This document shows positions 2,867 through 12,536 of a stretch of 12,536 bases of DNA, piece after piece. Numbering within the stretch: the first letter of the stretch is position 1; each line of letters starts with the position of its first letter. The stretch spans positions 1 through 12,536 of the forward strand of contig JAMDBS010000091.1 of the NCBI GenBank assembly GCA_023487325.1, written 5' to 3'. The translations under genes and the position numbers were made by a program. Origin of the DNA: Patescibacteria group bacterium. GTDB lineage: Bacteria > Patescibacteria > UBA1384 > JAMDBS01. The notes beneath the pieces are model-generated. The model saw nothing but the letters and a program-made list of their open reading frames with translations. It made no database searches and was not told the origin of the DNA.

Positions 2867-4223
2867 TTAATATAACCTTACTTGAAGGAATGCTTCGCCT
2901 ACTTTATAGATATCAGTTGCGCCTAGAGTCAAAATTATATCGCCAGGATGGGCAATTTTTCTCAGTTCACTAACTATATCATTATATTCGGCAATATATT
3001 TGGCATCTATATTTTGTTTTTTAATTTCTCTAACTAGATCTTGGGAATAGTCAGCGCGTGCCTCTCTGGGTTCGCGCCCACTAATAAGATAAATATCGCT
3101 GATTATTAGCTTGTCAACCCCGGCAAAAGATTTCACAAAATCTTTAAATAATAGCTTTGTGCGCATATATTGATGGGGCTGGAATACCACGATCAACTCG
3201 GGTTTATGGTGTAAAGGTTTAGAATTTGCATCGCCTCTATAACTTACACCTTGCACCATACACCTATTAATGTATTCCAGCGCTGCTTGAATCGTGGCCT
3301 TAATCTCAGTAGGATGATGGCCATAATCGTCAATCACCATAATGCCATTTTTCTCTCCCTTTATTTCAAACCGACGGTCGGCGCCGGTAAAATTATTTAA
3401 TGCGTTTTTAATTATTTCGTGTTTTACTCCTAATTCATGACAAACACGGGCTGCGGCATTAGCATTTAGTAAATTATGCTTTCCCGGCACTTGCAAATTT
3501 AAACCTGGCCATATTTTTTTAGCGGTAAATCTTTTTACCTTGCATTTGGCTGATTTTACTAGTGACGTAACATTTCTATCGTCTTGGTTTAAAACTAATA
3601 AACCATTTTTCGGTATAAGTTTGATAAATTTCTTAAAGGGCTTTTTTTATTTCCGGCATACCGCTCGGGTAAGTATCTAAGTGTTCTTCTTCTAAATTTA
3701 GGATTACCGCGATTTTTGGTCGAAAATCCAACATTTGGCGTTCATATTCACACGCCTCGGCCACAAAGTATTTACTTTTTCCGACACGAACATTACCTTT
3801 CCATTTTTTAACATTTGAGCCCACTAAAACCGTTGGATCATAACCGGCTTGCTCTAAAATTTCCCCAATCATAGTAGTAGTGGTGGTTTTCCCATGCATG
3901 CCGACGATGGCAATACCAATTTTATCATTCATTAATTGCCCAATAAGCTTAGAACGGGTAATTATTTTTATCCCTAATTCTTTTGCCTTGTCTAGCTCTT
4001 TTTGGGCCGGCGAACCAGTATGAACCGCCGCGGCAGTCACAATTACTGCATCGAGATCTTTTGTAATATGCTCCGGTGAATGCCCCTCAAAAGTCTTAAT
4101 TTTTAAGTCATAAGCCTTAAGGTTTTTTAAATCACAACCACTAACAATATTGCCTTGTGCTACAAGCAATTTAGCAAGACCGCTCATCGAAACCCCGCCT
4201 ATGCCAATAAGATGATAATTCAT
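2867..4223 (-). CDS. murC: UDP-N-acetylmuramate--L-alanine ligase MurC, with a frameshift
   Basis: MurC is the cytoplasmic ATP-dependent ligase that adds the first stem amino acid to UDP-MurNAc. The N-terminal frame (3633-4223) has the Rossmann motif GIGGVSMSGLA, the P-loop GMHGKTTTTT at 109-118 and EACEYERQMLDF at 156-167. It ends prematurely at TAA. The rest lies one frame away and contains FTGADRRFEIKG, DDYGHHPTEIKA, FQPHQYMRT and DYSQDLVREI. Removing one A from the A7 run at 3642-3648 (minus-strand sense) gives a continuous protein of about 451 residues, a normal MurC length, reading EIKKPFKKF across the join. Heptad array A adds about 24 residues between EYIN and KPELIVVF. No SD is present; the mRNA may be leaderless. 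A single-base assembly error, true mutation or transcriptional slippage could explain the break. Confidence 0.9.
3202..3271. repeat. Heptad array A, two opposed blocks inside murC
   Basis: On the plus strand 3244-3271 reads four units, CTTACAC, CTTGCAC, CATACAC and CTATTAA, preceded by CTCTATAA. On the minus strand 3202-3222 reads CTAAAC, CTTTACAC and CATAAAC. The two blocks point at each other and form an imperfect inverted repeat (GGTGTAA at 3208-3214 against TTACACC at 3244-3250). The whole is in frame within MurC and encodes roughly CMVQGVSYRGDANSKPLHHK, at about residues 318-341 of the restored protein. GGTTTATGGTG at 3201-3211 recurs exactly in array C in murG. Confidence 0.75.
3642..3648 (-). 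other. A7 homopolymer at the murC frameshift
   Basis: Seven T on the plus strand (seven A in the mRNA) sit exactly where murC changes frame. With six A the frame reads through as EIKKPFKKFIKL; with seven it stops eight bases later. Runs of this length are prone to sequencing error and, in AT-rich genomes, to RNA polymerase slippage. Confidence 0.8.
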
Positions 4224-4229
4224 AGTTAA

Positions 4230-4238
4230 ATATTACCA
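4230..4238 (-). promoter_or_regulatory. Possible extended -10 promoter giving leaderless murC mRNA
   Basis: The minus strand reads TGG followed by TAATAT, an extended -10-like element. No convincing -35 is visible. The expected start, seven bases after the hexamer, falls on the A of the murC ATG (4223). No SD precedes murC and a terminator lies just upstream, so murC needs its own promoter. This is a pattern call from one motif. Confidence 0.4.
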
Positions 4239-4254
4239 TTTTTCTGGTTAAATT

Positions 4255-4284
4255 AAAAGACGAACCAATAGTGATTCGTCTTTT
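4255..4284 (-). terminator. Intrinsic terminator after the 209-residue unknown gene
   Basis: A perfect 10-bp stem (AAAAGACGAA pairing with TTCGTCTTTT) encloses a 10-base loop and ends in T-rich sequence on both strands. It begins 23 bp downstream of the stop codon at 4308. It lies upstream of murC, so it should separate that unit from murC. The symmetry means it could also stop plus-strand transcripts. Confidence 0.85.
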
Positions 4285-4307
4285 ATGATATCGATCTAAC
4301 GCATAAA

Positions 4308-4937
4308 TTATAATTTACCCATTTCAGGTGATTTTTCTCCGGCCAAGGCTTTTGTAATATTCTGCAAAATCACAATTTCCTTGGCGGCATTTTTGATTTT
4401 TTGAGAATCTTGCTCAAAATTTATTACTTTTAAATCACTCTGAATTTTGCTGCTTGCTCTAGCCAATGCCTCGATCTGATGAGGTTGTAATTTAGGAAAA
4501 ACACCTTTAGCAAATTGAGCAACGTTTATAGGAACTTTACCACCCAAAACTACCCTCAAAATATCCAAACCTTTTTTGTCTTTGGCTTTTGTAATAGTAC
4601 ATTCAGAAGGAAATTGCGGTAGTTGAGACACAAGTTGATAAACATCAGGAGATTTGGCTTGAAAATCCTGTTCTACTGTTTCGGGAGTTACGCTTTCTGC
4701 TTCTACAAGTAGCTTATTGCCATCTACCAATTCAAAAGTTGTTTCCCCTACTTTAATCTGCCCTAAGCTTTCCGCTCTTTTCATTCTGGTCTGAAAACGT
4801 TCATTTAATAGTTTTTGTTTAGCTTCATCGCTCATTGCCACCGACATAGCTGGTTTTTGTTCGGCGAATCTTTTTGCTGCTTCTTGCTGTTTCATTACCT
4901 CGTCCGGTATTTGACCTGGCTCCATTCCAAATGGCAT
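4308..4937 (-). CDS. Unknown protein of 209 residues in its own transcription unit
   Basis: I do not recognise this protein. It begins MPFGMEPGQIPDEVMKQQEA and has no signal peptide or membrane segment, so it is probably cytoplasmic. Residues 10-60 are charged and glutamine/lysine-rich and look helical. The middle (about 62-135) is mixed, with short possible strands such as GETTFELVDGNKLLVEAE and LDILRVVLGGKVPI. The C-terminus (about 140-205) looks helical (QPHQIEALARASSKIQSDL, KNAAKEIVILQNITKAL). The start is well supported: AAGGAGG lies four bases before the ATG. A consensus promoter, a hairpin-containing leader and a strong terminator surround it, suggesting high and perhaps regulated expression. 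It interrupts the usual murG-murC junction. Nothing in the sequence ties it to cell-wall synthesis. Confidence 0.8.
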   Translation of the reverse strand: MPFGMEPGQIPDEVMKQQEAAKRFAEQKPAMSVAMSDEAKQKLLNERFQTRMKRAESLGQIKVGETTFELVDGNKLLVEAESVTPETVEQDFQAKSPDVYQLVSQLPQFPSECTITKAKDKKGLDILRVVLGGKVPINVAQFAKGVFPKLQPHQIEALARASSKIQSDLKVINFEQDSQKIKNAAKEIVILQNITKALAGEKSPEMGKL

Positions 4938-4941
4938 TTTT

Positions 4942-4948
4942 CCTCCTT
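4942..4948 (-). promoter_or_regulatory. Strong Shine-Dalgarno AAGGAGG
   Basis: AAGGAGG lies four bases before the ATG at 4937 and is the strongest SD in the window. Most neighbouring genes have weak or no SD. It fixes the start of the 209-residue gene and points to efficient translation. Confidence 0.85.
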
Positions 4949-4949
4949 A

Positions 4950-4965
4950 TCCCGTTAAGGCGGGA
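4950..4965 (-). other. Small hairpin abutting the Shine-Dalgarno
   Basis: On the minus strand TCCCG pairs with CGGGA around the loop CCTTAA, ending one base before the SD. The loop bases CCTTA could instead pair with TAAGG of the SD region (five pairs, six-base loop), which would exclude the first stem. This allows an open/closed ribosome-site switch. No experiment or comparative evidence supports that; the short stem alone could be chance. Confidence 0.4.
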
Positions 4966-4970
4966 CTTAA

Positions 4971-4995
4971 ATAAAAATTAGCCCAGTGGACTAAT
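4971..4995 (-). terminator. Attenuator-like intrinsic terminator in the leader
   Basis: On the minus strand ATTAGTCC pairs with GGGCTAAT (eight pairs, one G-U) around the triloop ACT, followed by TTTTTAT. It lies between the promoter at 5055-5083 and the SD at 4942-4948, so it would end transcripts before the coding region unless overridden. That is the layout of an attenuated leader. Confidence 0.6.
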
Positions 4996-5048
4996 TAAAA
5001 TAAATACGCTTTTCCTTCTTTTAAGTTTTGCACTTTAAACTTTAACAT
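4995..5048 (-). CDS. Possible leaderless leader peptide, 17 residues
   Basis: An ORF MLKFKVQNLKEGKAYLF begins at the ATG at 5048, seven bases after the -10 box, so the mRNA may begin on the start codon. Its TAA ends at 4995, the first base of the attenuator-like stem. A ribosome reaching the stop would therefore cover the hairpin. There is no run of a single regulatory amino acid, although four of 17 residues are lysine. It may be a chance ORF; only its position is suggestive. Confidence 0.3.
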   Translation of the reverse strand: MLKFKVQNLKEGKAYLF

Positions 5049-5054
5049 ATTACT

Positions 5055-5083
5055 ATTATACCTGAAAATTAAGGTTTTGTCAA
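5055..5083 (-). promoter_or_regulatory. Consensus sigma70-type promoter for the 209-residue gene
   Basis: The minus strand has TTGACA (5083-5078), a 17-base spacer and TATAAT (5060-5055). Both hexamers and the spacing match the housekeeping consensus exactly. The predicted start is near 5048. It is the strongest promoter seen in the window. The -35 is embedded in an inverted repeat (5079-5096), which could be an operator or the end of the murG terminator. Confidence 0.88.
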
Positions 5084-5120
5084 CCTTCGGGTTGACCCTG
5101 AATAATGTCGAGAGGGTCAA
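5079..5120. other. Two overlapping, mutually exclusive inverted repeats
   Basis: Repeat one pairs GTCAACC (5079-5085) with GGTTGAC (5090-5096) around TTCG, giving a C(UUCG)G tetraloop on the plus strand. Repeat two pairs TTGACCCT (5092-5099) with AGGGTCAA (5113-5120) around 13 bases. They share TTGAC, so only one can form. They lie just after murG and overlap the -35 of the next promoter. They could end murG transcription or bind a regulator. The minus-strand U-tract after them is poor, so a standard terminator is not certain. Confidence 0.5.
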
Positions 5121-5125
5121 ATTTT

Positions 5126-5167
5126 GGGATAGACAGTAGCTCTGAGACACTAGACGTTAGACGTTAG
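5126..5167 (-). repeat. Heptad array B at the murG 3' end
   Basis: Six 7-bp units in perfect phase on the minus strand: CTAACGT twice, then CTAGTGT, CTCAGAG, CTACTGT and CTATCCC. All begin with CT, and five begin with CTA. The first two encode the last murG residues and the third contains its TAG stop. Confidence 0.75.
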
Positions 5168-6298
5168 GTTGATAATCTCTTTAGAAATGAGTTCGGCGGC
5201 GTCTTTTTTAAACAATTTATGTGTATTTTCACGCATTTCTTTCAGTCGGTTTTTATTATTCAACAATCCCTCAATAATAATTCGTAAATTATCCGGTATT
5301 ATGTCTTGCTCTAAAATTACCACCGCTGCTTTATTCTTTTCGTACACTTTTGCATTCTGAAGTTGATGATTATTGGCCGAAGCAGGAAGCGGGATAATTA
5401 GCGCTGGTTTTGATAAACTGGATATTTCCGCCAGGGTACTGGCACCAGCGCGAGTAATTGTTAAATCCGCTTTTTTCATTAAATCAAGTATTTTATCGGT
5501 AAAATCATACAATTCATAATTAGAAAATTTATATTTTTGGCATTGACTATAATCATTTTTACCACAAATGTGAATGATGTGGTATTTTTTCAATAATTTT
5601 GGCAAAATCGCTAAAATTGTTTGATTGATAAAATGCGCGCCCTGACTACCGCCGGTTACTAGAATAGTAGGTTTATGGTGCAGAGGGGTAAGATGTAGAG
5701 GTTTAGAGGGGTAAGGTTTAAGAGATAAGACAGAATTTTTACGGATGGGATTACCGGTATAGACGAGTTTAGTCGATTTAATATAGGGATAAAACTCAGT
5801 CGGGAAGCCGACACAAACTTTTTTGGCTAATTTACTTTCGATTTTATTAGCCAATCCCATTACGGAATCGGATTCGTGAATTATAATCGGAATTTTTAAA
5901 AACCACCCAGCCAAAACTACCGGAAAAGTCGCATATCCACCTTTGGCAAAAATTACATCGGGCTTAACATTTTTAAGAATTTTTACTGATTGTATAAAAC
6001 CAGCAATCGATTTGAAAGGATCGATAAAATTCTGCCAATCAAAATATCGACGAATTTTACCTGAATTTATTGCTAAATAATTTAAATTATATTTTCTTGT
6101 TATCAGCCTTTCTTCGTCATTATCGGGACCAATAAACAAGAATTCTGTATCTTTATTTATCGATTTTAGTTCTTGGCTAACAGCAATAAGCGGTAAAATA
6201 TGTCCCGCTGTTCCACCGCCGGTTAGGACAACTTTAATAGGCGTATGGGGTAAGGCGTATGGGGTAAGGCGTATGGGGTAAGGCGTAGAAAATTTCAT
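5150..6298 (-). CDS. murG: MurG, lipid II-forming GlcNAc transferase
   Basis: MurG is a GT-B glycosyltransferase on the inner face of the membrane. It transfers GlcNAc from UDP-GlcNAc to lipid I, giving lipid II. The 382-residue protein shows VVLTGGGTAGH at 23-33, FAKGGYATFP at 118-126, HESD at 141-144 and GNPIR at 182-186. GGSQGAHFIN at 216-225, TRAGASTLAE at 282-291 and NNHQLQNA at 308-315 follow. Residues about 4-20 (TPYPIRLTPYALPHTP) precede the usual MurG start and come from array D. About 189-212 (SKPLHLTPLHHKP) lie in the interdomain linker and come from array C. The last codons lie in array B. The ATG overlaps the stop of the four-helix-bundle gene as ATGA, with GAGG eight bases upstream, supporting this start. 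Confidence 0.95.
   Translation of the reverse strand: MKFSTPYPIRLTPYALPHTPIKVVLTGGGTAGHILPLIAVSQELKSINKDTEFLFIGPDNDEERLITRKYNLNYLAINSGKIRRYFDWQNFIDPFKSIAGFIQSVKILKNVKPDVIFAKGGYATFPVVLAGWFLKIPIIIHESDSVMGLANKIESKLAKKVCVGFPTEFYPYIKSTKLVYTGNPIRKNSVLSLKPYPSKPLHLTPLHHKPTILVTGGSQGAHFINQTILAILPKLLKKYHIIHICGKNDYSQCQKYKFSNYELYDFTDKILDLMKKADLTITRAGASTLAEISSLSKPALIIPLPASANNHQLQNAKVYEKNKAAVVILEQDIIPDNLRIIIEGLLNNKNRLKEMRENTHKLFKKDAAELISKEIINLTSNV
5663..5733 (-). repeat. Heptad/octad array C in the murG linker
   Basis: On the minus strand 7- and 8-bp units alternate, among them CTTATCT, CTTAAAC, CTTACCC, CTCTAAAC, CTCTACAT and CATAAAC. It is in frame and encodes roughly LKPYPSKPLHLTPLHHK between the two GT-B domains, a place where extra residues are tolerable. 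A 22-bp stretch (5699-5720) recurs inverted in array E, and an 11-bp stretch (5670-5680) recurs in array A. Confidence 0.7.
5699..5720. repeat. 22-bp arm of a long-range inverted repeat (partner 6710-6731)
   Basis: The 22 bases here are the exact reverse complement of 6710-6731, one kilobase away in array E. The arms enclose the 5' half of murG and the whole four-helix-bundle gene. Identity this long in otherwise degenerate arrays points to recent copying or conversion. Confidence 0.8.
6241..6288 (-). repeat. Array D, 14-bp (two heptads) tandem repeat at the murG start
   Basis: GCGTATGGGGTAAG occurs three times in perfect tandem (6241-6282), followed by GCGTAG. On the minus strand this is CTTACCC and CATACGC alternating, so the 14-bp unit is two related heptads. 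It encodes MurG residues 4-20. Because 14 is not a multiple of three, each copy is read in a different frame, and loss or gain of one copy would shift the murG frame. Confidence 0.92.
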
Positions 6299-6672
6299 TT
6301 TTTGTTCCTCAAAGATTTAATTAAACCGTTTAACAATCTTCCTACATCATCAGCTAATAAAATTAGTTTTTCATAACCAATACTTGATAAATATTTCAAA
6401 TCCTTAGCTAATAAAAGATGATATTTTGTCTCTTCTAAAGAACCATTAGCAATATCAAGATGATTCAAGTAATTATTCAAGCTCTGTCTAGAAAAACCTT
6501 CGGCGATATTAGCGGGCGTAGACGAAACCGCTCTCCTTGTTTGTGAAGTTAGCGCGAATCTTTCTTCCGATGGATAATTCTTAGTTATTTTATAAACTTC
6601 TAAAACTAAAAAATGAGCTTTTTGCCAAACAACTAAATCTTTGTATGTTTTTATCGATTTTGTATTCATCAT
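6295..6672 (-). CDS. Four-helix-bundle protein, 23S rRNA intervening-sequence family
   Basis: The family was first found inside intervening sequences of 23S rRNA genes in Leptospira and others, but also occurs free-standing; its function is unknown. It is related to the accessory protein of diversity-generating retroelements. The 125 residues carry all family signatures. These are YKDLVVWQKAHFLVLEVY at 10-27, YPSEERFALTSQTRRAVSS at 33-51, TPANIAEGF at 52-60, and YLNHLDIANGSLEETKYHL at 68-86. Four helices are expected, with no signal peptide. Two ATGs start the gene; GAGGTG eight bases before the first is supplied by array E. The stop overlaps murG as ATGA. It lies between ftsW and murG, normally adjacent genes, and is bracketed by oppositely oriented arrays D and E, suggesting insertion as a cassette. 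Confidence 0.93.
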   Translation of the reverse strand: MMNTKSIKTYKDLVVWQKAHFLVLEVYKITKNYPSEERFALTSQTRRAVSSTPANIAEGFSRQSLNNYLNHLDIANGSLEETKYHLLLAKDLKYLSSIGYEKLILLADDVGRLLNGLIKSLRNKK

Positions 6673-6676
6673 AAAT

Positions 6677-6736
6677 CTTACACCTCTATACCCTATCTCT
6701 CTACATCTCTAAACCTTACCCCTCTAAACCTACCTT
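6677..6736 (+). repeat. Heptad/octad array E between ftsW and the four-helix-bundle gene
   Basis: Plus-strand units are CTTACAC, CTCTATAC, CCTATCT, CTCTACAT, CTCTAAAC (twice), CTTACCC and CTACCTT. It fills the entire intergenic space. It contains the ftsW TAG stop at one end and, at the other, the likely SD (GAGGTG, minus strand) of the four-helix-bundle gene. Its orientation is opposite to arrays C and D, with which it shares unit vocabulary. Confidence 0.75.
6710..6731. repeat. 22-bp arm of a long-range inverted repeat (partner 5699-5720)
   Basis: Exact reverse complement of 5699-5720 in murG. It lies in array E, next to the ftsW stop. Confidence 0.8.
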
Positions 6737-7857
6737 GTGCTTTGCTTTGATATATTCATCAAGATTCCTATTGCTGCTAATAATACAACTAGAGATGATC
6801 CGCCATAGCTTACAAATGGCAAAGGCACACCGGTCAGCGGCAAAAGTCCTGTCATAGCGCCAATATTAATTATGGCCTGAAAAACAATCCAGCTCGTAAT
6901 TCCCACTGCCAGTAATTTAGAGAATACGTCGGGTGCATTTTTGGCGATTTTATAACCTCGCCAAGCAATAAGAACGTATACAATAATAACCAGTATGGCC
7001 CTTAAAAAACCTAGTTCTTCGGTAATAATGGCAAAAATTGAGTCGGTTTGTGCCTGAGGCAAAAATAAGCGTTTTTGGCTGGATAAGCCGAAACCTAATC
7101 CCAGCAATCCACCCGATCCAATTGCTACCAAGGCTTGATTAATATGATATGACGCGCCGAGTGTTTCATTGCCAGGGTTTAGAAAAACTAAAAATCGTTG
7201 CAAGCGATATGCAGAAGTTTTAATTAATAGCCAAAAAGCTCCGCCAGCTGCAAGAATACCAATAATCATATGCGAAATGCGAGCTCCGGAGGCAAAAAAA
7301 ATAGCTACGGCAGAAAGAGCAATCACCGTCATAGTACCCATATCTGGTTCACACATTATTAGAAAAATAATCAACCCGGTAATTAAAATGAAAGGCAAAA
7401 ATCCGCGTTTAAAGTCTTTTACATCCGCACCTTTTTTGGCGAGCCACGCAGAAAGATAAATAATAAAAGTTAATTTAATAAATTCCGCCGGTTGGAAAAA
7501 AATTGGCCCTACGTGAATCCAGCGATAAGCGCCTTCCAGCTGTCGCCCAATACCTGGTACAAAAACAGCAATTAAAAAAAATAAGGTGATGCCAAGCATC
7601 CAGCCGGCATATTTATTCCAGAATTTGTAATCGATATTGTAGCAAATAACCCAAGCTATAATGCCGATTGCAAAAGCTGTAAGCTGTTTAGTTAGAAAAT
7701 AACTATTGTAATGATATAGTTCGTTAGAAATCACTACACTAGCGGAATAAACCATAATTACGCCAAAAACAGAAAGAATAAAAACTAAAATGGCCAGCCA
7801 AAAATCAGGCCTTTTCTGTTTGGGGCGAAAATTTTGCAGAGTTTTTGATAAAACCAT
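6730..7857 (-). CDS. ftsW: FtsW, septal peptidoglycan polymerase (SEDS family)
   Basis: FtsW is a polytopic membrane protein that polymerises lipid II into septal glycan with its partner class B PBP. This 375-residue copy has a 20-residue basic cytoplasmic start and then about ten hydrophobic segments. YRWIHVGPIFFQPAEF is the signature before the conserved loop. ASYHINQALVAIGSGGLLG, LPQAQTDSIFAIITEELG and GVPLPFVSYGGSSLV near the C-terminus are the family's most conserved stretches. The long extracellular loop between RLQRFLVFLNP and the QTDSIF region is present. The order murD-ftsW is canonical. No SD precedes the ATG: the space back to murD is entirely array F. The TAG stop lies in array E. 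FtsW is preferred over RodA from its place in the cluster. Confidence 0.93.
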   Translation of the reverse strand: MVLSKTLQNFRPKQKRPDFWLAILVFILSVFGVIMVYSASVVISNELYHYNSYFLTKQLTAFAIGIIAWVICYNIDYKFWNKYAGWMLGITLFFLIAVFVPGIGRQLEGAYRWIHVGPIFFQPAEFIKLTFIIYLSAWLAKKGADVKDFKRGFLPFILITGLIIFLIMCEPDMGTMTVIALSAVAIFFASGARISHMIIGILAAGGAFWLLIKTSAYRLQRFLVFLNPGNETLGASYHINQALVAIGSGGLLGLGFGLSSQKRLFLPQAQTDSIFAIITEELGFLRAILVIIVYVLIAWRGYKIAKNAPDVFSKLLAVGITSWIVFQAIINIGAMTGLLPLTGVPLPFVSYGGSSLVVLLAAIGILMNISKQSTR

Positions 7858-7862
7858 AGTAG

Positions 7863-7904
7863 ATAAGTTAAAAGTAGAAAGTTAAAAATTAAAAGTTATA
7901 AGTT
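7863..7904 (-). repeat. Heptad array F between murD and ftsW
   Basis: Six units in perfect 7-bp phase on the minus strand: AACTTAT, AACTTTT, AATTTTT, AACTTTC, TACTTTT, AACTTAT. The murD TAA stop straddles the first two and the ftsW ATG follows five bases after the last. The AT-rich units differ from the C-rich ones of arrays C to E, yet keep the same period. No SD is left before ftsW. Confidence 0.75.
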
Positions 7905-9305
7905 TTTAACAGCAAGATTAAATTGCTGGCCGCGGTCTTTATAATCTTTAAACCAATCAAAGCTAGCCGAAGCTGGCGAAAGTAAAACAATATCACTGCT
8001 ATTAGCTAGTTTATACGCTGCCCTAACTGCCTCAGCCATATTTTTGCAATTTTTTATAGTTTTAATAAATCGCTTATCTTTTATTGCTGCAACAATTTTT
8101 GGCCCAGTTTGACCAATTGACACAACAGCTTTAACCGAACTGTTTTCAATCACTTTTCCCAATTTCTTATAATCAGCATTTTTACTTGAACCGCCGGCAA
8201 TTAAAATTATGGGTTCATTAAATGATTTAATAGCCGCAATTGCGGTATCCGGATTAGTCGAGGCGGAATCGTTAAAAAAAGATATTCCTTTAATTTTTCT
8301 AATAAATTCTATCCTTAGCGGCAAACCCTTAAATCCTATTATTATTTTCTTTATGTTATTCGGTCTAACCCCGGCCAGATATGCACCTGCAGCAGCCGCA
8401 CAAACATTTTCTAAATTATGCGCGCCTTTTATTTTTAGCTCGCTTATAGAACATAATAAGTAGTCTTTTTTTTCTGTTCGCAGTATTAACCGTCCGGAAT
8501 CTGAATTGTCCCAATCAATAAAACAGCCTAAATCAACTGATTTTTTGTGCGAAAAATAATATTTATTTTCCGCTGGGGAGACAACAGCAAATTTAAATGA
8601 GGTTAAATAATCCAAATTGACTACTACAGAATCACTTTTTAGTTGATGGCGAACAATATTTAATTTAGAATCAATATACTCCTTTTGATCTTTATGATAA
8701 TCCAGGTGGTCAGTGGTAATATTTAAAACAATAGCAATATGCGGACTCTTATCTAAATCTTGCAATTGAAAGGAAGATAATTCCAAAACCACCCGATCGC
8801 TACTTTTAATTTTGTCCAAAAATTCTATCGGAGCATTACCAATGTTGCCACCCAAATAGACATTAGTCGATAGTCGATAGTCGATAGTTTTTAAGATTTC
8901 ATAGATCAAAGAAGTTGTTGTGCCCTTACCTTTGGTGCCGGTTACACCAATAATCTTGGCCGGGGTTAGATCAAAAAATAACTTTATTTGTGAAGAAATA
9001 ATCGTGCCTAATTTTTTAGCTTTTTGAATTTCCGGTAATAAATATGGTATTCCTGGTGAACGAAAAATAATATCAAATTTGCTTAAATTATCCAGATATT
9101 TTTTCCCTAGTTGATAACTAATTTTTAAATTTTGGGATTTGGGATTTGGGATTTGTTTAGGATTTAGAATTTGGAATTTAGGATTTCGATCACAAATTGT
9201 GATTTTCATCACCTTGTGATCGGTAAGCCATTTCAAAAGCGCTTGGTTTTCTACGCCAAAGCCCAGCAGAGCTATTTTTTTGTTTCGCATATCTTCGATA
9301 TTCAT
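7896..9305 (-). CDS. murD: UDP-N-acetylmuramoylalanine--D-glutamate ligase MurD
   Basis: MurD is the cytoplasmic ligase adding D-glutamate to UDP-MurNAc-L-Ala with ATP. In its 469 residues the N-terminal Rossmann domain begins IALLGFGVEN (11-20) and has FRSPGIP (81-87). The P-loop is GVTGTKGKGTTTS (120-132), with G where S or T usually follows the lysine. GGNIG is at 152-156, LELSSFQL at 174-181 and TTDHLDYH at 197-204. The C-terminal domain shows NDSASTNPDTAIAAI, IAGGSSKNADY and SPASASFDWFKDYKDRGQQF, which fix it as MurD. Two heptad arrays add residues in frame: H at about 39-59 (KFQILNPKQIPNPKSQNL) and G at 140-151 (TIDYRLSTNVYL). The ATG overlaps the radical SAM stop as ATGA. The stop lies in array F. 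Confidence 0.95.
   Translation of the reverse strand: MNIEDMRNKKIALLGFGVENQALLKWLTDHKVMKITICDRNPKFQILNPKQIPNPKSQNLKISYQLGKKYLDNLSKFDIIFRSPGIPYLLPEIQKAKKLGTIISSQIKLFFDLTPAKIIGVTGTKGKGTTTSLIYEILKTIDYRLSTNVYLGGNIGNAPIEFLDKIKSSDRVVLELSSFQLQDLDKSPHIAIVLNITTDHLDYHKDQKEYIDSKLNIVRHQLKSDSVVVNLDYLTSFKFAVVSPAENKYYFSHKKSVDLGCFIDWDNSDSGRLILRTEKKDYLLCSISELKIKGAHNLENVCAAAAGAYLAGVRPNNIKKIIIGFKGLPLRIEFIRKIKGISFFNDSASTNPDTAIAAIKSFNEPIILIAGGSSKNADYKKLGKVIENSSVKAVVSIGQTGPKIVAAIKDKRFIKTIKNCKNMAEAVRAAYKLANSSDIVLLSPASASFDWFKDYKDRGQQFNLAVKNL
8853..8887 (-). repeat. Heptad array G inside murD
   Basis: Five units in perfect phase on the minus strand: CTATCGA three times, then CTAATGT and CTATTTG, all beginning with CTA. 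The array encodes residues 140-151, between the helix after the P-loop and the GGNIG strand, and keeps the frame. Its CTA-plus-four form matches array B. Confidence 0.8.
9130..9189 (-). repeat. Heptad array H inside murD
   Basis: On the plus strand GGGATTT occurs three times (9134-9154). An 11-base step follows, then four ATTT-anchored units (ATTTAGA, ATTTGGA, ATTTAGG, ATTTCGA) at 9162-9189. It encodes the asparagine/proline/lysine-rich stretch KFQILNPKQIPNPKSQN in the N-terminal Rossmann domain of MurD, between CDRNP and ISYQLG. Confidence 0.78.
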
Positions 9306-10975
9306 TTTGGCTTATTCTCCCAACCAAAATCATAAAATAGTCGCAATGGTGTTTGAAATTTATTTTTATTAACTACGATTGAATCAAGATGAAAATTGAT
9401 TTCTTTTCCGAATTTTTCAAAAATATCTTCTGAAGTTATATTTGCACTTTTCTCCCAGTATTCATCTATCCGCCGATCTGAATGGCTTATAAAGTATGCT
9501 ATATAAGGAATAAAACCTGGCAACCTTAATTCTAGTTGTAAAGAAGAAAAGCATGCAGAATCTATTTTCACGATTTTAACTCGCAAAAAACCATATCGCT
9601 CTAGTTCTTCTATGTTGAATTTATAATTGTGTTTTAGCGTATGCGCCTTCTCTATTTCTTTCTTAGACGCGTAGTCGTCGCGTAGAGCTTCTAAGAAATT
9701 ACATTTTCGGTTATCTCTCGCTTCTTTCAGCTCTGATATCAGTGTTTCTTTTTCTTCATGATGGGAATTTGATATAGGATCTTCAGAAACCTGTTTTATT
9801 TGATCCAAATAATATTCATCTATTGAAAGTAATGCTTTAGGTATACCAGATTGTTCCACTGCCGAAACTTTATAATCTTCATCAATAGCCACACAGTACA
9901 ATTTATCGCCAGACCATATATGGAAAAAGGGAACAAATGGGGTATCTAAACGAATGTGTGCAGCAATATTGCCTTTAAGAATATTTAATATCGAATCTCC
10001 TTTCTTTATTGCTTTATTATCTTGTTTCTCTATGGGCACTACAATTTGCCCCTGGGGAAATTTTTCAGATAAAGGAACCTGAATTACGTTATAAAGTCCC
10101 CTAGGGGTTAAGAGTACCCCATTAAAACAACCGATACCTATGGATTGTTGCCCAAACTCTGAAAACGAAAAAGATCTCCCTAGCCCTTTGATGTGTGAAG
10201 TATTTTCGCCAACTATCCCCACCTCGCTATTTGTTTTTTCTTTTATAATTTCAGTTTCTTTCTGCGATAACCCATATACGCTGACTCTAGCTCCCCCTTC
10301 ACTCATATTTTGTAATTTTAAAAAATTTAGCCATGCATTGTTTCTGGTCTCTCTAGAAGTAATATGAGGACTGTACCCGGCATATTCTATAGCTAACTGG
10401 TGCACATCTTGATATGTTTTATTTTCAAGATGTTCTCGCGAAATATAGTCGGAAGGTTCGGAGGCCCAATATAAAAAAGGTTGCGTTTTATTAATTTGTT
10501 TTCCATATCGCTGAAACAAATTAGCTAATTGAGAATATGGAATATAGTCCCTAGTACCAAGAGGGGCATCAAAGCCACAAAATGGACAACCCTTGGAGCA
10601 GCCAAAAGTTAACTGGATCGAACCTAGATTGGAAAAAATTAGTTTGAGTTCGTCAGCACTAAATTTTTCTTCTACATTCAAAGGCAATGATTCACTGTCT
10701 CCAGGATAAAGCTTTTTCTTCTCTGCAACTAAGCAATCAATTAATTTTTGGTGATTTTGTTCTAGCCATTTTTCCCAATAACTAAATTTAGCCACCAGAG
10801 AGTTATTCTCTAAAGATTTATTTAGAAATGTTTCCAATTTTCCTTCCTGATGCAAGGAAACAAAATAGTCCATTAACTCTTTTGGCGACATTCCCAAAAT
10901 GTTTTCAGAAGAAATTTCTTCACTGTGAGTTTCGATTTTCACTTCTTCTAATGTTGGCTCGCCTTCCTTCAGCAT
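9302..10975 (-). CDS. Uncharacterised radical SAM protein, 557 residues
   Basis: The core motif is LTFGCSKGCPFCGF at 122-135. It has the CxxxCxxC spacing (C126, C130, C133) that binds the 4Fe-4S cluster used to cleave S-adenosylmethionine. FLYWASEPSDY at 167-177 fits the SAM-contacting GGEP-type strand. About 120 residues of helical, acidic sequence precede the core, and more than 200 residues of unassigned sequence follow it. I do not recognise the subfamily or substrate. No signal peptide or membrane segment is evident. The stop overlaps murD as ATGA, so it is co-translated with a peptidoglycan gene. The start has AAGGA seven bases upstream and overlaps the small ORF by 56 bases. No heptad array occurs in this gene. 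Modification of a cell-wall precursor is possible but purely contextual. Confidence 0.85.
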   Translation of the reverse strand: MLKEGEPTLEEVKIETHSEEISSENILGMSPKELMDYFVSLHQEGKLETFLNKSLENNSLVAKFSYWEKWLEQNHQKLIDCLVAEKKKLYPGDSESLPLNVEEKFSADELKLIFSNLGSIQLTFGCSKGCPFCGFDAPLGTRDYIPYSQLANLFQRYGKQINKTQPFLYWASEPSDYISREHLENKTYQDVHQLAIEYAGYSPHITSRETRNNAWLNFLKLQNMSEGGARVSVYGLSQKETEIIKEKTNSEVGIVGENTSHIKGLGRSFSFSEFGQQSIGIGCFNGVLLTPRGLYNVIQVPLSEKFPQGQIVVPIEKQDNKAIKKGDSILNILKGNIAAHIRLDTPFVPFFHIWSGDKLYCVAIDEDYKVSAVEQSGIPKALLSIDEYYLDQIKQVSEDPISNSHHEEKETLISELKEARDNRKCNFLEALRDDYASKKEIEKAHTLKHNYKFNIEELERYGFLRVKIVKIDSACFSSLQLELRLPGFIPYIAYFISHSDRRIDEYWEKSANITSEDIFEKFGKEINFHLDSIVVNKNKFQTPLRLFYDFGWENKPK

Positions 10976-11099
10976 ATTTATTCCTTACATTTCTTATCTT
11001 GATCTTATATGTCTTCAAACCCTCTAATTCTTGAGTGAGTCGAATTTTATCTCGCACTAATTCTTCGATGTATTTAATTTTTAGAGTTCTTTGGTCCAT
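10920..11099 (-). CDS. Small basic protein of 59 residues, unknown
   Basis: The ORF MDQRTLKIKYIEELVRDKIR... starts two bases after the mraY stop, with AGAGGA just upstream inside the mraY end, so it is well placed for translation after mraY. Residues about 5-38 look like a charged amphipathic helix; the C-terminus is rich in arginine and asparagine (GRRANIRRSENRNSQ). The last 56 bases overlap the radical SAM start in another frame. A longer reading from 11165 is open but would lie within mraY, so I chose the later ATG. Function is unknown. Its size and long overlap make it less certain than its neighbours. Confidence 0.5.
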   Translation of the reverse strand: MDQRTLKIKYIEELVRDKIRLTQELEGLKTYKIKIRNVRNKYAEGRRANIRRSENRNSQ

Positions 11100-11101
11100 T
11101 T

Positions 11102-12145
11102 TTATCCTCTCCCTATTAGCGCTATTGCCAAACCTAAAGCGGCGCAAACAGCGGAAATAACCCAAAAACGCATTGTCACTTTAGTTTCCGGCCAAGCCAG
11201 TGCCTGAAAATGATGATGAATCGGTGCCGATAAAAATACCTTTTTATGAAAAAATTTGCGCGAAAATATTTGGATTACTACCGAGAATGCTTCTAGCACT
11301 AGAACAAAAGCGATTACTGGCAAAACCACTACCGAGTTAGTTAAAAATGCCACTACGGCCAGCGTCATCCCCAGCGCCATGGAACCGGTATCGCCCATAA
11401 AAAATCTGGCTGGGTAAATATTAAACCACAAAAAAGCTAAAAGCGCGCCGGAAATTGTTCCGCAAAATATGGCTAAACTCGCCTGACCCTGAACTAAAGC
11501 AATAATGGAGTAGGCACCAAAACAAATAGTCATAATTCCGCCCAATAATCCGTCTAGGCCATCTGTTTCATTGCTAGCAAAAGCCGAACCAATTAAAACA
11601 ATAATAAATACTGGTATATACCACCAGCCGAGCTCAATATTGTAAGGTAAGCCTAAATAATTGCCGCCCGGAATGTGAATTGAACTCCAATCCAGTTTAA
11701 AATAAAACCACCAAGCACCCAAAGCCGCCACCATTAAGTATAAAATGAGTTTTGAGCGAAAACGAAAACCACCATTGTTGGGTCCGATTTGTTTGATATT
11801 CAGTAAATCGTCGATGGCACCAATAATTCCCGCGAAGACCAAAGTAAAAAGCGGCAAATATGTTCCGGCACGATCAAGATTAAACAATAAAGTTATTAAA
11901 GCAACCGTTAGCCAAATTAAAATACCTGCCATCGTTGGTGTATTTTCTTTACTTTTGTGTAAAGAATAAAAAATCGGTGTTTTACTTTTTTCGTCATAGC
12001 CAGTTTGGCGAATTTTTTTGCCAAGTTTATTTTTATACAAAAAACTAGTTAAAAATGGAGTCATAAGCATAGCTGCTAAAAATGCGATTGCGGCGAATAA
12101 AAAGATTTTCATTAATCCCGAAATTGAAAAAGTAATTTGTTCCAT
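11102..12145 (-). CDS. mraY: MraY, phospho-MurNAc-pentapeptide translocase
   Basis: MraY is the polytopic membrane enzyme that transfers phospho-MurNAc-pentapeptide to undecaprenyl phosphate, forming lipid I. The 347-residue protein has about ten hydrophobic segments and all family signatures. KENTPTMAGILI is at 66-77, and IDDLLNIK, with the catalytic DD pair, at 111-118. SNETDGLDGLLGG is at 191-203, FNIYPARFFMGDTGSMALG at 241-259, and the cytoplasmic HHH cluster at 310-312 is followed by ETKVTMRFW. Some positions differ mildly from the usual NxTDGLDGLA and TPTMGG. The gene follows murF as expected. The space between them is array I, and no SD is visible before the ATG. The stop is two bases from the small ORF. 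Confidence 0.95.
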   Translation of the reverse strand: MEQITFSISGLMKIFLFAAIAFLAAMLMTPFLTSFLYKNKLGKKIRQTGYDEKSKTPIFYSLHKSKENTPTMAGILIWLTVALITLLFNLDRAGTYLPLFTLVFAGIIGAIDDLLNIKQIGPNNGGFRFRSKLILYLMVAALGAWWFYFKLDWSSIHIPGGNYLGLPYNIELGWWYIPVFIIVLIGSAFASNETDGLDGLLGGIMTICFGAYSIIALVQGQASLAIFCGTISGALLAFLWFNIYPARFFMGDTGSMALGMTLAVVAFLTNSVVVLPVIAFVLVLEAFSVVIQIFSRKFFHKKVFLSAPIHHHFQALAWPETKVTMRFWVISAVCAALGLAIALIGRG

Positions 12146-12149
12146 AGGT

Positions 12150-12177
12150 TTATTTTAGTATTTGGTATTTAATATTT
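12150..12177 (-). repeat. Heptad array I between murF and mraY
   Basis: Four units in phase on the minus strand: AAATATT, AAATACC, AAATACT, AAAATAA. They fill nearly the whole spacer. The murF TAA stop overlaps the first two units, and the mraY ATG follows four bases after the last. The units are degenerate, so this is the weakest of the ten arrays and is supported mainly by analogy with array F. Confidence 0.5.
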
Positions 12178-12536
12178 TGCTAATTTATCAACGATTTCTT
12201 CCATATACATTCCCCGTGATCCCTTTATTAATATTATATCGTTAGGATGTATTTCTTTCAATAAAAATTCAACTATCTGTTGATTATTTTTAAATTGATA
12301 TGAATTTCGCTGTTTGGCAAAATTTGATCCGATAGTGATGATTAAATCGGCTGTTTTTTTTGCCAAATCCAATATTTCCTTATGGGCATTATTGGAAAAA
12401 TCTCCTAATTCGAGCATATCGCCCAAAACTGCAATTTTTCGGGAAGGTGTAAGGTGTAAGGTGTAAGGTGTAAGGCTTAATTTCTTTAGTGCTTTTTCCA
12501 TTGACAGTGGATTGGAGTTCAATTCACATTCCGGGC
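12169..12536 (-). CDS. murF: MurF, C-terminal part
   Basis: MurF is the ligase that adds the D-Ala-D-Ala dipeptide to the UDP-MurNAc-tripeptide. The frame stays open to the right edge, so the 5' part lies outside; 121 codons plus the stop are visible. ELNSNPLSMEKAL corresponds to the family's NANPxSMxxAL motif. IAVLGDMLELGDFSNNAHKEI is the MurF signature of the third domain, and ILIKGSRGMYMEEIVDKL is the usual end. An internal TTG (12522) is not the start, because conserved sequence continues upstream of it. Array J adds about a dozen residues (LSLTPYTLHLTPS) between EKALKKL and RKIAVLGD. The stop lies in array I, just before mraY. Confidence 0.92.
   Translation of the reverse strand, partial: PECELNSNPLSMEKALKKLSLTPYTLHLTPSRKIAVLGDMLELGDFSNNAHKEILDLAKKTADLIITIGSNFAKQRNSYQFKNNQQIVEFLLKEIHPNDIILIKGSRGMYMEEIVDKLAKY
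12444..12478 (-). repeat. Heptad array J inside murF
   Basis: AAGGTGT occurs four times in perfect tandem (12444-12471), followed by the variant AAGGCTT; on the minus strand the unit is CTTACAC. It is in frame and encodes SLTPYTLHLTP. The same unit occurs in arrays A and E, and the peptide core LTPYxL also occurs in the MurG extension from array D. Confidence 0.93.

What the first reader, a model, noticed from the sequence alone, without database searches (positions are those of the whole stretch)
3202..12478. Ten dispersed arrays of ~7-bp units seed a dcw cluster
Ten arrays (A 3202-3271, B 5126-5167, C 5663-5733, D 6241-6288, E 6677-6736, F 7863-7904, G 8853-8887, H 9130-9189, I 12150-12177, J 12444-12478) share a 7-bp period (sometimes 8) but differ in unit sequence. 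C-rich units (CTTACAC, CTTACCC, CATACGC) link A, C, D, E and J. CTA-plus-four units link B and G. AT-rich units link F, H and I. Period conserved while sequence drifts suggests a common generating process rather than simple slippage of one unit. The heptanucleotide STRR repeats of filamentous cyanobacteria are a precedent for period, not sequence. No transposase is visible in the window.
Basis: partly seen in the sequence, partly recalled or inferred. Interest (0 to 1): 0.85.

Follow-up and report, generated by a model that had tools for sequence, protein, structure and literature searches.

The report
Heptamer-armed mobile hairpins in bacterial genes

Summary
The 7-bp arrays are mostly real: TRF finds 7 of the 10 with periods of 7 or 14, against 0.24 such rows per shuffle. 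[quoted passage not shown]). Elsewhere, 68 of 84 IVP loci have period-7 arrays beside the ORF and 66 of 84 have arms that are reverse complements of each other; 10 DGR Avd loci, distant relatives, have neither. Arms and gene insert as one unit: against one empty site, 428 bp are added with an exact 5-bp duplication, and the empty site has no array. Arrays near armed IVPs often share the unit (30 of 45), and 9 of 10 close pairs are ORF-less hairpins. Best reading: D/E are the arms of an IVP hairpin element; A, C and J, related in unit, are its ORF-less or one-armed kin; B, F, G, H and I are probably arms of other such elements. Weak points: D and E pair only moderately, no DNA of close relatives was reached, dispersed arrays did not differ significantly between IVP-bearing and IVP-free genomes, and the moving enzyme is unknown.

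The parts
6295..6672 (-). IVP (23S rRNA-intervening-sequence protein / bAvd-like four-helix-bundle) gene, 125 aa; the gene of the element
   Evidence: PF05635 4.3e-36, PF22296 2.2e-12; PDB sequence relatives 2gsc (XCC0516) and 2rld
6677..6736 (-). Array E: upstream arm of the IVP element in operon sense (G-rich), next to the ATG
   Evidence: an upstream arm with G over C is the rule: 59 of 66 elements with paired arms, 6 the other way
6239..6288 (-). Array D: downstream arm of the IVP element (C-rich in operon sense); clean 14-bp units; read as the N-terminal extension of MurG, whose ATG overlaps the IVP stop codon
   Evidence: TRF score 98; N-terminus 22 aa before the TGGG motif against a median of 7 in the 106 of 119 relatives that the pattern fitted
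3202..3271 (.). Array A: two inverted arms with a short loop and no ORF, inside a Mur ligase gene (murC by position)
5663..5733 (-). Array C: one arm, in frame inside murG, same unit family as E (C-E inverse score 24.0)
   Evidence: variable loop in MurG relatives
12444..12478 (-). Array J: one arm, in frame in a Mur ligase C-terminal part (murF by position), unit AAGGTGT shared with A and D
5126..5167 (-). Array B: one arm, unit TAGACGT, overlaps the 3' end of murG; links to G
8853..8887 (-). Array G: one arm, unit TAGTCGA, in frame in murD; links to B
9130..9189 (-). Array H: one arm, unit TTTGGGA, in frame in murD; links to I
12150..12177 (-). Array I: weak arm between mraY and the next Mur ligase gene; links to H
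   Evidence: TRF score 34
7858..7904 (-). Array F: one arm, unit AAGTTAA, between ftsW and murD; linked to no other array

Best explanation
The arrays are arms of IVP hairpin elements. An element is an IVP gene enclosed by two arrays of mostly 7-bp units that are reverse complements of each other, so DNA or RNA can fold into a long stem with the gene in the loop; this is the anatomy of the classical 23S rRNA intervening sequence. Arms and gene insert together between genes (shown on cyanobacterial plasmids). ORF-less hairpins and single arms of the same unit lie near such elements (shown). In the window, E-IVP-D is one element in sense in the dcw operon; A (two arms, no ORF), C and J (one arm) are its kin; B-G, H-I and F are probably arms of other such elements (inferred from period only). 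The two arms stay matched while units differ between elements probably because template switching across the hairpin, or a comparable copying step, rewrites one arm from the other while slippage changes copy number in steps of 7 (inferred; two copies at one site differ by exactly 14 bp). IVP probably binds the stem and helps a trans-acting enzyme move it (inferred; enzyme unknown). Arms inside coding genes survive mostly because the C-rich orientation is free of stop codons (inferred).
For: IVP between D and E. 84 IVP loci: period-7 in 68, inverse arms in 66, either in 79; DGR Avd 0 of 10 and 0 of 10. Period-7 per single flank: 36 and 33 of 50 (set includes one DGR Avd); control stretches 720-900 bp away: 4 of 49 and 3 of 50, 1 of 33 and 3 of 32. 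Own arms beat arms swapped between loci at the 5% level in 36 of 50 and in 30 of 35 of a second set. Empty site: L004 and L005 against L186, 428 and 414 bp inserted, GTAAT duplicated, no array at the empty site. Two reciprocal filled/empty sites on Nostoc plasmids. 30 of 45 arrays near armed IVP loci carry the local unit; 9 of 10 close pairs are inverted and ORF-less. In the Bacillota-titled phylum, 17 arrays in 71 kb beside IVP genes against 4 in 633 kb of sampled stretches of IVP-bearing genomes, same threshold. ORF-less hairpin with the same unit in the same 23S rRNA as an IVP element (L043). Upstream arm has G over C in 59 of 66, as E has. Window arrays A, C, D, E and J are related in sequence. 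A published 23S IVS has tandem heptamers of variable number before its ORF (PMC4990558, passages).
Against: In the window D and E pair only moderately: local score 9-10, 5 of 50 other loci's downstream flanks do as well, duplex energy reached by 29 of 500 shuffles, and C mates better with E than D does. No close relative's DNA was reached, so insertion in this lineage is not shown. B, F, G, H and I have no IVP and no matching unit. In some loci the two flanks resemble each other more in direct than in inverse orientation (for example L009 62.5 against 17.0, L030 61.0 against 19.5, also L022, L037, L039, L041, L049, L052). The exact duplication was seen at one site; site 2 allows a 5-bp repeat with one mismatch by my reading and carries about 35 further bases beyond the downstream arm; site 1 shows no duplication. 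In 30 IVP-bearing against 30 IVP-free genomes dispersed arrays were rare and not significantly different (4 in 633 kb vs 1 in 675 kb at threshold 20, p=0.145; 2 vs 0 at 21, p=0.08). Some elements use periods 8, 9 or 11; 5 of 84 IVP loci show neither feature. The authors of the Xanthomonas/Nostoc study generally found no link of their heptamer arrays to mobile elements, few inverted pairs in Nostoc and none of the arrays on its plasmids (PMC4692102, passages). In Coxiella the authors think the IVS RNA matters more than the protein (PMC4990558, passage).
Confidence: 0.78

Rival explanations
1. Ordinary microsatellites: each array arose by replication slippage of a local 7-mer, and the IVP gene is a bystander.
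For: Unit copy number does change in steps of 7 (L004 against L005, 14 bp). B, F, G, H and I differ in unit from D/E.
Against: Flanks on the two sides of the ORF are inverse copies in 66 of 84 loci; slippage alone does not make inverse copies several hundred bp apart. Arrays arrive together with the gene. Avd loci and control stretches mostly lack them.
Confidence: 0.08
2. Arrays came first and are target sites: the IVP gene jumps into pre-existing heptamer arrays.
For: Arrays without IVP are common near IVP genes.
Against: The empty site fetched from a record with 99% identical flanks has no array; both reciprocal Nostoc empty sites lack it too. Insertion into a direct array would leave direct, not inverse, flanks.
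Confidence: 0.05
3. IVP is an Avd-like partner of a reverse transcriptase acting in trans, and the element is a minimal retroelement copied from its RNA hairpin (DGR-like or intron-like mobility).
For: IVP and Avd are related (PF22296 hit; 29% identity). Of 33 armed elements outside RNA genes in bacterial genomes and plasmids, 28 run in the sense of both neighbours, 2 against both, 3 mixed or unclear (at least one of the 28, L050, is doubtful because its left neighbour overlaps a tmRNA on the other strand); the 8 in rRNA or RNase P RNA are in sense by the Rfam strands.
Against: 10 of 32 IVP-bearing genomes have no RVT_1 match (22 of 32 against 82 of 167, p=0.053), with the caveat that many are incomplete drafts. 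In viral contigs 24 of 35 are antisense to both neighbours, 2 in sense, 9 mixed. A 5-bp duplication fits DNA transposition.
Confidence: 0.2
4. The arrays are functional regulatory or processing signals (G-quadruplexes, RNase III sites, translational couplers) kept by selection.
For: Heptamer arrays in Xanthomonas and Nostoc were described as quadruplex formers, with 70 convergent pairs in one Xanthomonas genome (PMC4692102, abstract and passages).
Against: Units here differ between arrays and several are AT-rich; the D extension is absent from the 59 relatives displayed; in-frame arrays C, G and H sit in loops that vary between relatives.
Confidence: 0.1

Closest known systems
23S rRNA intervening sequences (IVS) with the S23/IVP ORF (Coxiella and others)
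   Same: IVP gene in the loop of a terminal inverted-repeat stem; tandem heptamers of variable number before the ORF in Coxiella (PMC4990558, passages)
   Different: Here the element lies between protein genes of the dcw operon, with unit-related ORF-less and one-armed arrays around it, some read in frame inside cell-wall genes
STRR heptanucleotide arrays of heterocystous cyanobacteria (recalled)
   Same: 7-bp units, dispersed, unit differs between places; RNase P RNA as host site (recalled; indirect support)
   Different: Described without a gene as far as I recall; here the arms are found on IVP genes of cyanobacterial plasmids
GGGAATC arrays of Xanthomonas and TAACTGA arrays of Beggiatoaceae
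   Same: Dispersed heptamer arrays; convergent pairs in Xanthomonas (PMC4692102, passages); in Beggiatoaceae a suspicion of mobility, stops in one orientation, and an array at the very end of a MurG (PMC4679880, passages)
   Different: Neither text contains 'S23', 'intervening' or 'helix bundle'; PMC4692102 reports no general link to mobile elements; units differ
DGR accessory protein Avd
   Same: Homologous four-helix-bundle protein
   Different: Next to a reverse transcriptase; no arms in 10 of 10 loci examined
REP/REPIN-RAYT and MITEs (recalled)
   Same: Small hairpins, non-autonomous copies moved in trans
   Different: Units are not conserved between elements, and the protein is not a known nuclease (recalled)

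Membership tests
IVS/IVP hairpin element | IVP (PF05635) ORF | tested here: met
   4.3e-36, 123.8 bits against a cut-off of 33.8
IVS/IVP hairpin element | Terminal inverted repeats that pair | tested here: inconclusive
   D/E are in inverted orientation and share GGGGTAAGG, but the score is modest: 5 of 50 other loci reach it, 29 of 500 shuffles
IVS/IVP hairpin element | 7-bp units in the arms | tested here: met
   D 14-bp units, E mixed 7/8; 68 of 84 elsewhere
IVS/IVP hairpin element | G-rich upstream, C-rich downstream arm | tested here: met
   E and D by reading; rule from 59 of 66
IVS/IVP hairpin element | Location in 23S rRNA (classical IVS) | tested here: not met
   Lies between murG and ftsW, so it is not a classical rRNA IVS; of the loci collected here 6 were found in 23S rRNA and 2 in RNase P RNA (plasmid loci other than L018 and the viral contigs were not searched with Rfam)
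IVS/IVP hairpin element | Excision by RNase III | not testable with these tools
   -
Diversity-generating retroelement | Reverse transcriptase beside Avd | tested here: not met
   No RT hit among the 10 window ORFs scanned, of 18 listed
Diversity-generating retroelement | Template and variable repeats | not tested
   -
STRR | Heptanucleotide arrays in a heterocystous cyanobacterium | tested here: not met
   The nearest MurG and MurD relatives that bear a taxon name are Patescibacteria, further ones Berkelbacteria

The most novel reading that the evidence does not exclude
IVP hairpin elements are a bacteria-wide class of small mobile DNA, and the long-known dispersed heptanucleotide arrays of bacteria (STRR, GGGAATC, TAACTGA, and the ten arrays here) are their ORF-less or one-armed copies; the rRNA intervening sequence is only the best-known landing site. 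The element inserts with a 5-bp duplication, keeps its two arms matched while the unit drifts, and can be tolerated as in-frame peptide in essential genes.
Probability: 0.5. Interest if true: 0.9.

Novelty: new variant of a known kind. Interest (0 to 1): 0.78.

Why it matters
If right, it joins three separate puzzles: how rRNA intervening sequences move, what the widespread 'four helix bundle protein' genes in operons and cas loci are, and where dispersed heptanucleotide arrays come from. It gives a testable mobile element with known ends, a near-identical empty site and a small protein, and it may explain odd variable peptides in cell-wall enzymes of Patescibacteria.

Tried and rejected
Genome-level link between IVP genes and dispersed arrays: underpowered, not significant. 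Own promoter in antisense elements: median spacer between arm and start codon 8 (sense) against 22 (antisense), p=0.53, so dropped. Reverse transcriptase or Y1 transposase as the mover: RVT_1 22 of 32 against 82 of 167 (p=0.053), Y1_Tnp 26 of 32 against 90 of 167 (p=0.0055), but 3 of 32 IVP genomes lack both, and co-occurrence may only reflect mobile-element load or completeness. The FtsW scan for close relatives gave two distant loci only. The IVP single-protein scan of viral contigs found none; the alignment scan found 44. The isolated-phage collection gave no match to one viral-contig IVP and only DGR Avd to the window's IVP, so the IMG/VR contigs are predicted viruses and may be mis-called. 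In-frame arrays could be compared in relatives only at protein level.

What was taken and dropped: 20 of the 36 plasmid records matched; 30 loci, one for each of 30 of the 35 matching genomes (the tool lists further places without loci); 44 viral-contig loci, of which 9 were dropped as near-duplicates; 9 of the 19 records with an Avd match (the rest mostly duplicates, two further distinct ones not fetched for the cap), several of them closely related. L020 (DGR Avd) and the window are not among the 84. In one search only arrays beside loci with arm score at least 12 were counted (45; one search lists 64 without that filter). In one search I left out by hand 7 weak-armed loci, the 8 RNA-gene loci, L016 and L020; without the 7-locus exclusion the counts are 31 sense, 3 against and 6 mixed of 40. 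The neighbours of genome and viral loci are crude ORF calls. L005, L034 and L038 look like second copies of orthologous sites.
Full report
WHAT IS THERE. The window is a dcw cluster on the minus strand. Pfam names MurG, FtsW, MurD-like and MraY-type domains and further Mur ligase parts, which I take for murC and murF by position (10 of the 18 ORFs were scanned). The nearest MurG and MurD relatives that bear a taxon name are Patescibacteria, with Berkelbacteria further down the MurD list. Period-7 signal is far above shuffles (8 clusters against 0.47), and TRF rows with a period multiple of 7 number 9 (7 arrays) against 0.24. A, C and E are irregular (7/8-bp steps). A-C-D-E-J form one unit family, B-G a second, H-I a third, F stands alone; A also resembles H a little.

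THE MISSED GENE. ORF 6295-6672(-) between D and E is PF05635, 23S_rRNA_IVP (4.3e-36), also PF22296 bAvd (2.2e-12). On the sense strand E lies just upstream of its ATG and D just after its stop; E is G-rich and D is C-rich, in inverted orientation. MurG's ATG overlaps the IVP stop, and D is read as a MurG N-terminal extension: 22 aa before TGGG against a median of 7 in the 106 of 119 relatives that the pattern fitted; none of the 59 relatives displayed has it.

THE SAME ANATOMY ELSEWHERE. I examined 20 plasmid loci (of 36 records matched), 30 genome loci (one for each of 30 of 35 matching genomes) and 44 viral-contig loci (35 distinct). Reading the flanks showed G-rich repeats before the ORF and their reverse complement after it in most. 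Over 84 IVP loci (one DGR Avd taken out): period-7 in 68, inverse arms (score at least 14) in 66, one or the other in 79. Ten DGR Avd loci: 0 and 0 (loci, several closely related). In one search periods 7, 14 and 21 stand out in the flanks; at threshold 18, period 8 reaches 7 of 50 loci and others at most 4. Some elements have best periods of 8, 9 or 11. Single flanks reach the period-7 threshold in 36 and 33 of 50, control stretches 720-900 bp away in 4 of 49 and 3 of 50; in the second set 29 of 35 loci against 1 of 33 and 3 of 32 control stretches. Own arms against arms swapped between loci: mean 18.2 against 8.3, 36 of 50 in the top 5%; second set 20.5 against 8.4, 30 of 35. Not all is inverse: in L009, L022, L030, L037, L039, L041, L049 and L052 the flanks resemble each other more in direct orientation. 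The upstream arm has G over C in 59 of 66 elements, the reverse in 6. Host genes include 23S rRNA (L018, L035, L040, L043, L047, L052) and RNase P RNA (L042, L044).

MOBILITY AS ONE UNIT. Two Nostoc plasmids are reciprocal filled and empty sites for two different IVP elements with different units; flanking BLAST pieces are 92.4, 93.3 and 99.7% identical. At one of the two the insert has about 35 bases beyond the downstream arm. For the Trichormus/Scytonema element, six of the listed plasmid records match at 98-99% identity over a span shorter by about one element. One of them was fetched: 428 bp are inserted in L004, the alignment slides over 5 bases, that is an exact duplication of GTAAT, and the empty site carries no array. 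L005 has 414 bp, exactly 14 bp less in one arm. So arms and gene arrive together, and unit number changes afterwards (that the event was insertion and not precise loss is inferred from the duplication).

ORF-LESS KIN. Of 45 further arrays near armed IVP loci (of 64 near any), 30 match the unit of the local IVP better than 95% of other loci's arms do, and 9 of 10 close pairs are inverted with no room for the ORF. Arrays are dense near IVP genes in the Bacillota-titled phylum: 17 in 71 kb against 4 in 633 kb sampled from IVP-bearing genomes. In L043 one 23S rRNA has an IVP element in one helix and an ORF-less hairpin of the same unit in another (score 29.0 against at most 13.5 for other loci). 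In the window, A is such an ORF-less pair; C and J are single arms of the same unit family.

HOW IT MAY WORK. Shown: anatomy, matching arms, joint insertion, ORF-less kin. Inferred: IVP binds the stem; a trans-acting enzyme inserts the element; template switching across the hairpin keeps the arms matched while slippage changes copy number; stop-free C-rich arms are tolerated in reading frames. Orientation is puzzling: of 33 armed elements outside RNA genes in bacterial genomes and plasmids, 28 run in the sense of both neighbours, 2 against, 3 mixed (L050 among the 28 is doubtful, since its left neighbour overlaps a tmRNA), while of 35 in viral contigs 24 run against both, 2 with both, 9 mixed. 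That argues against insertion only into sense RNA. RT and Y1 transposase are present in 22 and 26 of 32 IVP genomes, so neither is universal.

LIMITS. In the window the D/E pair is only moderately complementary (29 of 500 shuffles), E pairs better with C, and no close relative's DNA was reached. The genome-level comparison of dispersed arrays was not significant. That B, F, G, H and I belong to the same class rests on period alone. The authors of PMC4692102 generally found no link of such arrays to mobile elements (passage), and those of PMC4990558 hold the IVS RNA to matter more than its protein (passage).

LITERATURE. Ten searches (open PMC papers only, no preprints) listed no paper whose title or shown abstract links IVP genes outside rRNA with heptamer arms or dispersed heptamer arrays; three lists were cut (20 of 26,457, 40 of 69, 20 of 806). 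Seen: PMC4990558 (passages: heptamers GACAGAT of variable number before the IVS ORF), PMC3936711 (passages: IVP genes in cas loci; 'tandem', 'hairpin', 'heptamer' and 'inverted' occur 0 times), PMC10053308 (passages), PMC4692102 (abstract, outline and passages), PMC4679880 (passages), PMC2858038 (passages), PMC8700078 (passages). Subscription papers and preprints were not searched, so priority is not established.

CHECK.

Noticed in passing
viral contigs L133-L175: IVP elements in predicted viral contigs are antisense to both neighbours in 24 of 35 (2 in sense, 9 mixed), the opposite of bacterial and plasmid loci (28 of 33 sense, 2 against, 3 mixed). Unexplained.
   Followed up: partly
window 3497-3632: The Mur ligase gene taken for murC is split into two ORFs (2867-3496 and 3633-4223); a run of seven T lies near 3645. 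Frameshift or assembly error not distinguished.
   Followed up: no
   Followed up: no
window 9302-10975 (-): 557-aa ORF with the motif CSKGCPFC (radical-SAM-like by eye, no Pfam hit) between murD and mraY, an unusual guest in a dcw cluster.
   Followed up: no
MurD relatives P0125-P0159: Other repeated peptides recur in variable loops of MurD relatives (for example FPISNFQFPN and SGKRLRPTF), suggesting further dispersed in-frame repeat families.
   Followed up: no
L009, L012, L015: IVP elements lie inside CRISPR operons (cas6-cas4 of type I-D, cas10-cmr3 of III-B); some relatives of the L012 and L015 sites lack them by span, so the published cas association may be insertion rather than function.
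   Followed up: partly
P0243 and P0033: An IVP 68% identical to the window's and a MurG 48% identical both have a longest contig of 6119 bases, perhaps the same contig with an IVP near murG.
   Followed up: no
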